A stretch of DNA of 64,000 nucleotides, from contig MDLA01000080.1 in the NCBI GenBank assembly GCA_001730015.1, forward strand, positions 124,001-188,000, read 5' to 3'. Below the pieces are notes generated by a model, which searched no databases, was not told the DNA's origin, and saw only the letters and a list, made by a program, of their open reading frames with translations. This stretch comes from Chromatiales bacterium (ex Bugula neritina AB1) (GTDB taxonomy: Bacteria > Pseudomonadota > Gammaproteobacteria > Granulosicoccales > Granulosicoccaceae). Every line of letters starts with the position of its first letter. Position 1 is the stretch's first letter. This document shows, piece by piece, positions 30,725 through 32,958 of the stretch. The position numbers and the translations under genes were made by a program.

Positions 30725-30808
30725 GATGATAGCGTTCGATGCACAAATCTACAGAAGTGTATCGTCTGCTCTACCAATGCCTTGAACTGACTTAGCCCGC
30801 ATTATTCA

Positions 30809-32771
30809 GTGCGCCGTGGAAAGGTCGCACTCTTCAGTGGGTGAAAATCCCACCCGACAAGGGTCGTTCCAGTCGGTAGCAGTCGGGACAGTTAGCAAGA
30901 TGCTGGCTGAACAGCTTCCCGATGTCAAAGGGTCCAGTAGAGGATTCAGCGAGTAAACAGGCCGTAACGTGAGTGAACGTCGAGCAGGCCTCGAAAAGGG
31001 CAATGCAGAAGCCGACTCCCCTGAATTTGGAGGAAGGCCGCCGTCACTGGTGAAGTAGAACGACGAACGCAGCCAGTGATTCTGCCGGGGTAGTGACGAT
31101 GGCATGTTTACAAAAGGAGAGTGTGTGCAACACGGGAAGTCTCATCAGACAGTTTGGGTTAGCGACCGAACAACGGTGTTGCCGCGAGGCACGGAATCGT
31201 GTTTGTTGAGATGGCGGATAGGGTCGTAAGACTGAAGAAGTCGGGTAACGCCGATGTAGGAAAGGACCCTTGGTCTAGGAGAAGCGTTTTGAAAGAGCGA
31301 GCGATGAGGTGATTGACGAATGAGTCTGGTAACACCAGCAAAAGTTGAAAAGCTCCGAATGGCGCTGCATGTGAAAGCGAAGGAAGAACCCGAGTTTCGA
31401 TTCTATCAACTGTATGACAAGCTGTATCGAGCGGATGTGCTGGAATTTGGCTACCGAGTAAGCCGTTCAAAGAAGGGCGCGGCAGGCATAGATGGCATGA
31501 CGTTCGAACAGATTGAGTCAGAAGGCGTAGAGAATTGGCTTGGGGAATTGACGCGAGAGTTAAAACAGAAGACGTACAAGGCAGACCCGTTAAAGCGGGT
31601 ATGGCTTGAGAAACCGGATGGTACGCAAAGACCGCTGGGCATTCCGACGATCCGAGATCGAGTGGTGCAGACAGCAGCGGTGCTGTTACTGGGTCCGATA
31701 TTCGAACCGGACCTGCAACCAGAACAGTATGCGTATCGCAAAGGTCGCAACACACATGATGCAGTAAGACATGTGCACAGTCTGGTCAACACCGGACACA
31801 CAGAGATAGTGGATGCGGACTTGTCCGGCTACTTCGATACGATCCCCCACGCAGAACTGATGACATCGCTGTCGCGGCGCATCAGTGATCGCCACGTACT
31901 GGCGCTCATCAAGCAATGGCTTGTGGCACCAGTCGAGGAGAAAGATAAGCGTGGTCGTCGTCATCGAACGACGCGGGCCAAGGACGAGAAGCGTGGAGCC
32001 CCGCAAGGTTCTCCGCTATCGCCATTTCTATCCTCTGTGTACATGCGTCGTTTTCTGTTGGGATGGAAGACACTGGGCATAGATCGAAAGCTCAACGCAC
32101 ACATTGTCAACTTTGCAGATGACTTCGTGATCTGCTGTCGGGGAACCGGAGCACAAGCGATGTCGTTGATGAGGCAGATGATGGAGCGATTAAAGCTGAC
32201 GGTCAACGAGCAGAAAACGGGATTGCGAATTCTGCCCGAAGAGACAGTGGACTTTCTGGGATACACAATAGGACGTTGTTACTCAACCAAGACAGGCAAA
32301 GCGTATTTTGGTACCCGCCCGTCAAAGAAGAGTATACGCAAACTGACAACCAAGGTAAGTGAGTTGACAGCGCCGCGTAGATCCCTACTCGAAGCCGAAG
32401 TAGTGGTGGGGCAACTGAACAGACTGTTGTCAGGGTGGAGTCAGTACTTCTGTCTCGGTCCGGTGTATAAGTCTTATCGAGTTGCAGACGCTCACACAAC
32501 GCATCGGCTGCGTCAATGGTTAAGGCGAAAACACAAAGTCAGTGGTTCGGGGTCAAAACGCTACCCTGATGAGTACCTATATGAATCACTAGGGCTCATC
32601 CAGCTGAAAAGGAAACCGCAAAACTTTCCGTGGGCGAAGGCATGATAATCTTAGAGAAAGCCGGATGCAGGAAAACTGCATGTCCGGTTTGCCGAGCGGC
32701 GACTGGAAACGGGAGGGGATCTTGTCTGTACGACTACCTGTCTGCGCGCCAGTCGTCGACTCTACCGGGAT
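30809..32771 (+). mobile_element. Group II intron with internal maturase gene
   Basis: The 5' end has the GTGCG consensus, and the first 22 bases fold as a GTGCG/CGCAC stem. Domain V is at 32657-32690: a 34-nt hairpin with the AGC triad at 32659-32661 and a GAAA tetraloop at 32671-32674. Domain VI follows, with CGG and GAG pairing with CTC and CCG around the likely branch-point A32764, which is 8 nt before the proposed 3' end in AT. A possible EBS1 (TGAAT at 31022-31026) can pair with the last five exon bases ATTCA. The maturase gene lies in domain IV. The 3' end is inferred from these features and from the restored inverted repeat. Confidence 0.85.
31320..32645 (+). CDS. ltrA: Group II intron reverse transcriptase/maturase
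   Basis: The 441-residue protein has RT domains with KPDGTQRPLGIPTIRDRVVQ, the segment AYRKGRNTHDAV, and a catalytic box FADD at about residues 265-268 (the common form is YADD). Maturase domain X occupies about residues 330-420. The chain ends with YLYESLGLIQL...NFPWAKA and has no HNH endonuclease domain. It reads in the same direction as the intron and ends 11 bases before domain V. There is no frameshift or stop, so the intron may still be active. Homing without the endonuclease would use a nascent-strand primer. Confidence 0.93.
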   Translation: MSLVTPAKVEKLRMALHVKAKEEPEFRFYQLYDKLYRADVLEFGYRVSRSKKGAAGIDGMTFEQIESEGVENWLGELTRELKQKTYKADPLKRVWLEKPDGTQRPLGIPTIRDRVVQTAAVLLLGPIFEPDLQPEQYAYRKGRNTHDAVRHVHSLVNTGHTEIVDADLSGYFDTIPHAELMTSLSRRISDRHVLALIKQWLVAPVEEKDKRGRRHRTTRAKDEKRGAPQGSPLSPFLSSVYMRRFLLGWKTLGIDRKLNAHIVNFADDFVICCRGTGAQAMSLMRQMMERLKLTVNEQKTGLRILPEETVDFLGYTIGRCYSTKTGKAYFGTRPSKKSIRKLTTKVSELTAPRRSLLEAEVVVGQLNRLLSGWSQYFCLGPVYKSYRVADAHTTHRLRQWLRRKHKVSGSGSKRYPDEYLYESLGLIQLKRKPQNFPWAKA

Positions 32772-32794
32772 TGACAGGATCTCACTTGATCTTT

Positions 32795-32817
32795 GAATCC
32801 ACAGAGGATTTTTTTCT
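32795..32817 (+). terminator. Terminator-like hairpin inside the MITE-like element
   Basis: GAATCC pairs with GGATTT (one G-T pair) around ACAGA, followed by an uninterrupted T run. It lies in the downstream exon of the intron, 24 bases past the predicted splice site. Confidence 0.5.
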
Positions 32818-32958
32818 TGCAAACATCAGTAAGTATTCCACGCGAGAAGAAAATCCACTGTGATATCCCTTGGTGTGAACAGATCAGGGCGGCGCGATAT
32901 CCTCGCCACCCCATGAATAATGCGGGCTAACTAACAAGGCGGACAGCAGTTCTCGGGT

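What the first reader, a model, noticed from the sequence alone, without database searches (positions are those of the whole stretch)
30792..32930. Group II intron precisely inserted in the terminal repeat of a MITE-like element; excision restores a 19-bp inverted repeat
The sequence shows a perfect 17-bp inverted repeat on either side of the intron. The intron starts directly after the left copy. If the 3' splice site is placed where domain VI predicts it (branch A 8 nt before an AT end), the joined exons give TTAGCCCGCATTATTCATG, and both repeat ends then match over 19 bp. This supports both the intron boundaries and the identity of the host element. It suggests an intron that homes to transposon ends and may spread with them.
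Basis: partly seen in the sequence, partly recalled or inferred. Interest (0 to 1): 0.72.

Follow-up and report, generated by a model that had tools for sequence, protein, structure and literature searches.

The report
Intron that targets transposon ends
A self-splicing, self-copying RNA element sits exactly inside the end of a small repeated transposon, and its relatives in distantly related bacteria sit at the same spot of the same kind of transposon, so this intron line appears to make its living by homing into transposon ends.

Summary
The 9 distinct 3' junctions found in the genome, read with uninterrupted copies and domain VI, put the intron at 30809-32765. The "restored 19-bp repeat" is an artefact: 13 bp are transposon end, 4 bp the YTAR target-duplication site. 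The host is a MITE (175-bp consensus, about 325 end matches) whose ends resemble IS1380-family transposons. All 8 distinct 5' and 9 distinct 3' junctions found here lie at one position of a MITE end; both ends are used. Near-identical introns in diverged MITEs indicate repeated invasion, not co-transposition. A covariation scan over 19 introns recovers EBS1 (-1 to -7) and, less strongly, EBS2 (-11 to -14, the last duplication base plus first transposon bases). Relatives with 58-90% identical RTs (Gammaproteobacteria, Verrucomicrobia, a "Deltaproteobacteria" MAG) occupy the same position in such ends, EBS1 partly tracking the local sequence; other relatives insert elsewhere. Insertions are strand-biased (16 of 17 flanks; control 12 of 20), as expected of an endonuclease-less intron using the lagging-strand template. 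Prior art: RmInt2 uses both repeats of ISRm17. New: MITE/IS1380-type targeting, across phyla.

The parts
30792..30795 (+). Left flank TTAG: YTAR target-duplication site of the MITE
   Evidence: perfect 4-nt direct repeats in 26 of 40 uninterrupted copies; here left TTAG / right CTAA do not match
30796..30808 (+). Left terminal repeat CCCGCATTATTCA, end of the 5' exon
30795..30798 (+). IBS2 (positions -14 to -11, GCCC)
   Evidence: covariation scan; per-intron table; pair counts
30802..30808 (+). IBS1 (positions -7 to -1, TTATTCA)
   Evidence: covariation scan
30809..32765 (+). Group II intron, 1957 nt (GTGCGCC...CTCTAC)
   Evidence: 8 distinct 5' and 9 distinct 3' junctions read with uninterrupted copies; Rfam
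30835..30972 (+). Rfam RF02003 group-II-D1D4-4 match
   Evidence: 71.3 bits
30998..31001 (+). EBS2 (GGGC)
   Evidence: window 30997-31001 paired 0.71 with -10..-14 in 16 introns against permuted 0.50, maximum 0.62 of 200
31022..31028 (+). EBS1 (TGAATTT)
   Evidence: 0.91 paired over -1..-5 in 19 introns against permuted 0.45, maximum 0.69 of 200
31320..32645 (+). Reverse transcriptase/maturase, 441 aa, no endonuclease domain detected
   Evidence: Pfam RVT_1 and GIIM only; TIGR04416 over cut-off plus three sub-cut-off RT families
32655..32690 (+). Domain V hairpin
   Evidence: Rfam RF00029 32656-32765; fold z -5.0
32694..32762 (+). Domain VI, bulged branch-point A at 32759
32766..32913 (+). Rest of the MITE (3' exon), starts CGGGATTGAC
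   Evidence: 40 scored places at 86-100% identity, itself included (225 candidates, 40 scored)
32914..32926 (-). Right terminal repeat CCCGCATTATTCA (read on minus)
32927..32930 (+). Right flank CTAA

Best explanation
An endonuclease-less group II intron that retrohomes into the terminal inverted repeats of IS1380-type MITEs. Shown by sequence: exact boundaries; at least 9 copies at one position, 13 nt into a MITE end; both ends used; the intron's EBS1 and EBS2 can pair with the terminal repeat and with the last base of the YTAR duplication site; EBS1 changes with the target in relatives; insertions are strand-biased. Inferred: the RNP reverse-splices into single-stranded DNA of the lagging-strand template at replication forks, the RT copies it, and the large stock of near-identical MITE ends serves as a renewable landing site that mostly harms no gene. 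Splicing itself is inferred from intact domains and ORF.
For: Junctions: 8 distinct 5' and 9 distinct 3' junctions, at YTA(A/G)C(C/T)CGCATTATTCA | CGG. Uninterrupted copies: 40 distinct elements in the fetched loci. Two of 9 3' junctions (C183, C201) lie in the opposite MITE end. Independent invasions: MITE identity mean 85% over 21 pairs against 639-641 of 641 identical intron positions in five copies. EBS1 and EBS2 emerge from a scan without a prior position; -1 A to G is matched by EBS1 T to C in L095, and -14 A by EBS2 T in L078 and L081. Relatives with the intron at the same position of a YTAR-CC end: L077, L078, L079, L080 (GTAG flank), L081, L082, L091, and copies in G015; L156 from its 3' side only. 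Host genomes carry the cognate end in excess: G017 72, G015 34, G388 142, G413 180, G416 12, G417 19 against reversed-pattern controls of 0-4; G414 11 against 4; G418 36 against 14. IS1380 transposase genes with such ends beside them: G388 (12 and 13 of 13 nt), G413 (12; other end 10), G414 (13 at one locus, 12 at another), G417 (11); own genome 12 of 13 at the right end, 10 of 13 at the left. Strand: GC skew positive in intron orientation in 16 of 17 flanks and 9 of 9 of the 3' flanks, against 12 of 20 for uninterrupted MITEs.
Against: No RNA data: splicing and mobility are untested. The window's own flanks (TTAG/CTAA) are not a direct repeat. The window's EBS1 pairs at only 5 of 7 positions with its own exon and at 6 with that of L082; in 3 of 8 end-targeting introns (window, L077, L080) another intron's exon pairs better than the own one, and EBS2 pairs 4 of 4 with most exons of the set, so within the set only EBS1 discriminates, and partly. 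EBS2 was picked from some 20,000 scanned windows without correction. EBS3 could not be located. PF13701 was not found in 5 of 9 host genomes. The RT tree needs 3 changes for end-targeting; relatives L169, L170, L173-L175 and L261 insert elsewhere. G025 and G044 have only intron fragments of 89 and 34 nt at the 5' side and no excess of ends in the patterns tried. Right ends were not found for L077 and L078, and that of L082 matches only in its first bases. The skew test uses draft contigs and some 5' and 3' flanks may be two sides of one copy; against the MITE control Fisher P is 0.023.
Confidence: 0.87

Rival explanations
1. The intron entered one MITE once and the intron-bearing MITE then transposed as a composite unit.
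For: Each intron is inside a MITE; the outer flanks of different copies differ.
Against: Carrier MITEs differ by about 15% on average and include both size classes while the intron is almost identical; two of 9 copies are in the opposite end. Relatives insert at the same position in quite different elements.
Confidence: 0.05
2. Terminator-type (class C-like) targeting: the intron recognises the hairpin of the palindromic MITE rather than its sequence.
For: The MITE consensus is an imperfect palindrome by eye.
Against: EBS1 of 7 nt with covariation and an EBS2; insertion is 13 nt inside the end; relatives with different element interiors use the same position.
Confidence: 0.04
3. The repeated ends are recognised mainly by the RT protein (for example the conserved YTARCC), with RNA pairing secondary.
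For: YTARCC is conserved where EBS1 target bases vary; EBS2 hardly discriminates within the set; protein contacts outside the IBS are known for group II introns (recalled).
Against: Relatives with other targets carry another EBS2 that fits their exon in part, for example L084; -14 A is matched by EBS2 T in L078 and L081.
Confidence: 0.13

Closest known systems
RmInt2 of Sinorhizobium meliloti in the inverted repeats of ISRm17 (class D)
   Same: Group II intron that uses both inverted repeats of a mobile element; lagging-strand advantage proposed (PMC5894124, passages; the primary paper is not held)
   Different: Other target element (family of ISRm17 not checked here); the one S. meliloti plasmid record listed matches the window's RT at 31%, not verified to be RmInt2; described in those passages for one species, whereas here the target is shared across phyla and is mostly a MITE
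RmInt1 in ISRm2011-2 (IS630 family)
   Same: Intron homing to an insertion sequence; bias to the lagging-strand template (PMC5894124 passages); lacks the endonuclease domain (PMC8914252, abstract in the listing)
   Different: A site in ISRm2011-2; not described as a repeat end in the passages seen
c-Ha.de.I1 subgroup 2 in ISPlu15-like elements
   Same: Intron copies at one specific position of an IS (PMC3522654, passages)
   Different: Not described as a terminal repeat in the passages seen
Class C introns at terminators and attC
   Same: Endonuclease-less, use abundant sites outside genes (PMC4424553 passages; PMC8919778 section 9)
   Different: Different recognition; here a sequence-specific homing site with EBS1 and EBS2
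IStrons (group I intron plus IS)
   Same: Self-splicing intron associated with a transposon (PMC4227781, abstract and passages)
   Different: There the IS gives the chimera its mobility; here the intron is an independent retroelement that invades the transposon

Membership tests
Mobile group II intron | Conserved core and domain V | tested here: met
   RF02003 71.3 bits, RF00029 42.6 bits, both over gathering score; DV fold
Mobile group II intron | Domain VI with bulged branch A 7-8 nt before the 3' end | tested here: met
   A32759
Mobile group II intron | RT plus maturase domain ORF | tested here: met
   (TIGR04416 317.3 bits, cut-off 300)
Mobile group II intron | EBS-IBS pairing | tested here: met
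   (EBS1 strongly, EBS2 less so); EBS3 not located
Mobile group II intron | Self-splicing and retromobility | not testable with these tools
   needs RNA or cells
Endonuclease-less intron | No endonuclease domain in the IEP | tested here: met
   only RVT_1 and GIIM in Pfam; protein ends 32 aa after the GIIM match
Endonuclease-less intron | Bias to the lagging-strand template | tested here: met
   16 of 17 flanks, control 12 of 20, Fisher P 0.023; GC skew is a proxy
Class D (RmInt type) | IEP clusters with class D | tested here: inconclusive
   31% to the best place on one S. meliloti plasmid record, not verified to be RmInt1 or RmInt2; no class D reference in the tree
Class C (terminator-targeting) | No EBS2; inserts after terminator hairpins | tested here: not met
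   EBS2 found; target is a MITE end
IS1380-type MITE (host element) | Terminal repeats shared with an IS1380 element in the same genome | tested here: met
   CCCGCATTATTCA against IS right end CCTGCATTATTCA, 12 of 13; left end 10 of 13; in relatives' genomes 11-13 of 13 at the better end in G388, G413, G414, G417, no IS1380 gene found in 5 of 9
IS1380-type MITE (host element) | 4-bp target duplication | tested here: met
   26 of 40 perfect, mostly YTAR; not perfect at the window copy
IS1380-type MITE (host element) | Short, no transposase, multiple copies | tested here: met
   159-179 bp, 175-bp consensus, 40 distinct uninterrupted copies in fetched loci

The most novel reading that the evidence does not exclude
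An old lineage of group II introns is specialised on the ends of one transposon superfamily (IS1380 and its MITEs). It has followed those ends across phyla, its EBS1 and EBS2 being re-tuned to the host's version, with EBS2 reading the junction of duplication site and transposon end. This would be a further conserved target class beside unique homing sites, terminators and attC, and a direct case of one selfish element tracking another.
Probability: 0.52. Interest if true: 0.72.

Novelty: new variant of a known kind. Interest (0 to 1): 0.6.

Why it matters
Bacterial group II introns need sites where they do no harm. Here the site is itself a multiplying element with hundreds of ends, and intron and target can be read off together in several genomes. 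That makes co-adaptation of guide RNA and target directly testable, and it offers a natural set of retargeted introns with their cognate sites, useful for design rules of intron-based gene targeting.

Tried and rejected
19-bp repeat: rejected. Co-transposition: rejected as the main route. An early guess of mine that EBS1 lies in the conserved TGAGTGA loop (about 30980) was dropped because that stretch is conserved in introns with other targets; the scan put EBS1 at 31022. EBS3: a scan of D1 columns gave no column that explains the +1 base in all 18 introns used; unresolved. The first pattern for counting ends in other genomes was badly chosen (it fixed the +1 base; counts near or below control in most of the 10 genomes); replaced for 7 genomes. 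Cardinium MITE paper (PMC9769881, passages): MITEs and introns both mentioned, no intron in a MITE end in the passages shown. Searches whose listings and passages showed no report of introns in MITE or IS1380 ends: (no paper); one search found four papers with RmInt2 or ISRm17. The RmInt2 paper (doi 10.4161/rna.32092) is not held and is known here only through the review PMC5894124. A search of the order of G388 held only 5 genomes and added one relative with another target.

Corrections and dropped rows: one search printed 42 elements, two of which (in L048 and L076) are alternative pairings of an element already counted; one search recounts 40. For the +1 base, three of 42 rows were dropped as misaligned. 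One search gave a mean MITE identity of 80% because some pairs of different size class were aligned without a gap; the gapped recount is 85%. The C109 intron figures (such as 62 of 105) reflect a contig end where only 67 nt match at 94% and are not used. C183 and C201 were left out of the MITE pair table because they are in the other end. L087 and L091 RTs were too short for the tree, and L083, whose 5' side is unknown, was labelled as not end-targeting there.

Full report
What is there. The perfect 17-nt inverted repeat is real (30792-30808 and 32914-32930). Between the arms lies a group II intron: Rfam finds a core match and domain V, and the ORF 31320-32645 is a reverse transcriptase/maturase with no endonuclease domain detected.

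Exact boundaries. In the same genome (7.44 Mb, 207 contigs) the intron is repeated, and apart from the window copy the matches lie at or near contig ends, as expected of a repeat that breaks an assembly (16 matches). A script over the fetched loci found 8 distinct 5' junctions and 9 distinct 3' junctions, counting the window. All 8 of the 5' exons end in YTA(A/G)C(C/T)CGCATTATTCA and all 9 of the 3' exons start CGG; the intron termini themselves were part of the search pattern. Uninterrupted elements read straight through TTCA-CGGG at this point, so the exon restarts at the C at 32766 and the intron is 30809-32765 (1957 nt). Domain VI folds with one bulged A at 32759, seven nucleotides before that end.

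The host element. The 17-mer (up to 3 mismatches) occurs 166 times forward and 159 reverse, against 7 and 4 for the reversed control. From the loci in hand, 40 distinct uninterrupted elements of 159-179 bp give a 175-bp consensus (its 42 rows include two double pairings); 26 of 40 are flanked by a perfect 4-nt direct repeat (TTAG 10, TTAA 8, CTAG 4, CTAA 3, GTAC 1), against a shuffled mean of 7.3 and maximum of 17 in 1000. So the outer 4 nt are a duplication site and the terminal repeat proper is CCCGCATTATTCA. In the window the two flanks are TTAG and CTAA, two mismatches from a direct repeat, as in 5 of the 40. The IS1380-family transposase (PF13701) has 10 matches in this genome; where element ends were found in those loci they read CCTGAATAATTCAT on one side and CCTGCATTATTCAT on the other, mostly with YTAR flanks, which is 10 and 12 of 13 nt of the MITE end. 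In relatives' host genomes the link is closer: G388 has an IS1380 gene with ends CCCGGATTTCTCT and CCCGGATTTCTCA (flanks CTAG and, read inwards, CAAG), G414 has one with CCCGGATATTTCA after TTAG, G413 one with CCCGGATATTTCA after CTAG and a less similar second end, G417 one with 11 of 13. PF13701 was found in 4 of 9 such genomes; in the other five the family rests on the end sequence alone.

How it spreads. Five copies with 641 nt of intron are identical at 639-641 positions, while the MITEs around seven left-end copies average 85% identity over 21 pairs (76-96%) and include both size classes. Two of 9 copies sit in the opposite end of the MITE. The intron has thus invaded existing MITEs repeatedly. 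All 9 3' junctions begin with C. Among 39 uninterrupted copies counted, the left end has C there in 34, the right end in only 3 (T in 33), and both right-end insertions have C; the intron seems to prefer that base. Relatives in G015 have T or A at +1 (L102, L106, L110), so this is not general.

Target recognition. I aligned the first 520 nt of 19 introns with known 5' junctions, 8 of them at transposon ends of this type, and asked which intron windows pair with the exon at a fixed register better than after permuting exons. The top window starts at 31022 and pairs with -1 onward (91% over the first five, permuted 45%, maximum 69% of 200): EBS1. The next group that exceeds its permutations is 30997-31003, pairing around -10 to -16 (71% in 16 introns against 50%, maximum 62%): EBS2, GGGC with the exon GCCC at -14 to -11. 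It was picked from some 20,000 windows without correction, so its support rests also on its place upstream of EBS1 and on the changes in step: two relatives with A instead of G at -14 (L078, L081) have GGGT. L095, with G at -1, has CGAATTT instead of TGAATTT. L084, in an unrelated gene, has a different EBS2 and EBS1 that fit its exon. The intron of the window pairs at 5 of 7 EBS1 positions and 4 of 4 EBS2 positions. In eight end-targeting introns the mean EBS1 match is 5.75 of 7 with the own exon and 4.25 with exchanged ones, but in 3 of 8 some other exon pairs better than the own one, and EBS2 hardly discriminates within the set.

Relatives. A scan of genome contigs with the RT gave 16 loci. 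Of these, L077 (90% RT identity, Granulosicoccaceae; same junctions as L094 in G017), L078 (68%, Oceanospirillales MAG), L079 (65%, "Deltaproteobacteria" MAG, labelled Myxococcota by the tree tool), L080 (60%, Opitutaceae), L081 and L082 (58%, Verrucomicrobia) and L091 (Gammaproteobacteria, partial RT) have the intron after a 17-nt end that starts with (Y or G)TAR and CC; L156 (64%) shows the right end though its 5' side is missing. Right ends with an extended matching repeat were found for L079, L080, L081, L091 and L156; for L082 only the first bases match; for L077 and L078 none was found. An 8-nt match of the kind searched is expected by chance about once in six loci, so short matches alone mean little. 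In the same family, G015 has copies at ends CTAGCCCGGTTTATTCG and, judged by eye, at both kinds of MITE end; G025 and G044 have short 5' fragments after similar ends, without shown excess of such ends. The cognate ends are frequent in other hosts: G388 142, G413 180, G017 72, G015 34, G417 19 and G416 12 against controls of 0-4, and G414 11 against 4, which is weak. L079 is the best case of retargeting: its exon is TTAGCCTTGATGTGACA, its right end lies 171 nt downstream with 3 mismatches over the 17 nt and a perfect TTAG duplication, the host genome has 13 places with at most one mismatch (two of them, by their coordinates, probably the intron's own locus; with up to 3 mismatches 36 against 14 in the control), and its EBS1 pairs at 7 of 7 positions where the window's EBS1 would pair at 3. 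Other relatives do not use such ends: L084, L086 and L092 share a gene-like target, and L085, L160, L169, L170, L173-L175, L176 and L261 sit elsewhere. The tree of 26 RTs clusters the 8 end-targeting rows (0 of 500 shuffles as low) but needs 3 changes, so one origin with losses and several origins are both open.

Strand. If an endonuclease-less intron uses the lagging-strand template, its sense strand should be the G-rich one (established knowledge, recalled, plus PMC5894124 passages for the template). In the intron's orientation the GC skew of up to 20 kb of flank is positive in 16 of 17 flanks, and in 9 of 9 of the 3' flanks alone (one of them, C183, short and weak); the one negative value is near zero. 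Twenty uninterrupted MITEs give 12 of 20, Fisher P 0.023. The window itself has positive skew in all 8 bins. Flanks of the same copy may be counted twice among the 17, and skew is a proxy.

Known or new. The review PMC4424553 (passages) names three specificities of bacterial introns: homing sites, terminators and attC. The review PMC5894124 (passages) states that RmInt2 of S. [quoted passage not shown] so intron homing into transposon ends is known in one species. What I did not find in print, in the listings and passages, is a lineage conserved on IS1380-type ends or on MITEs across phyla. I file it as a new variant of a known kind.

Shown and inferred. Shown by sequence: boundaries, position, copy number of at least 9, both ends, pairing with partial covariation, strand bias. 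Inferred: splicing, lagging-strand retrohoming, and the benefit of a renewable harmless target.

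Noticed in passing
L171, L172 (Buttiauxella and Xenorhabdus plasmids): Similar introns with 5' exons TTAACGTAGGATAATTT and TTAACGTATAATAACTT, which look like another repeated target; no inverted copy with up to 5 mismatches was found within 1.5 kb downstream.
   Followed up: partly
L261 (G420), 5' junction at 997 on the minus strand of the locus: A relative (54% RT) inserted beside repeated TGTCCGCCATG motifs that resemble the end region of some other transposon.
   Followed up: no
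L084, L086, L092: Introns of Alphaproteobacteria share a 3' exon beginning TGCT.GT, apparently one conserved gene as homing site.
   Followed up: no
L034 (G000 contig C183, 1-700): An intron copy followed by CGGGGTTTATTCACGGGGTGG, a MITE end that seems to carry a duplication of part of the terminal repeat.
   Followed up: no
window 30792-30795 and 32927-32930: Flanks TTAG and CTAA are inverted to each other, not direct repeats, which is what made the repeat look 17 bp long; point mutation or recombination between intron copies could explain it.
   Followed up: partly
L173, L174, L175: Introns on Microvirga, Bradyrhizobium and Paraburkholderia plasmids share exon ends CGGGT|C, an unidentified common target.
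   Followed up: no
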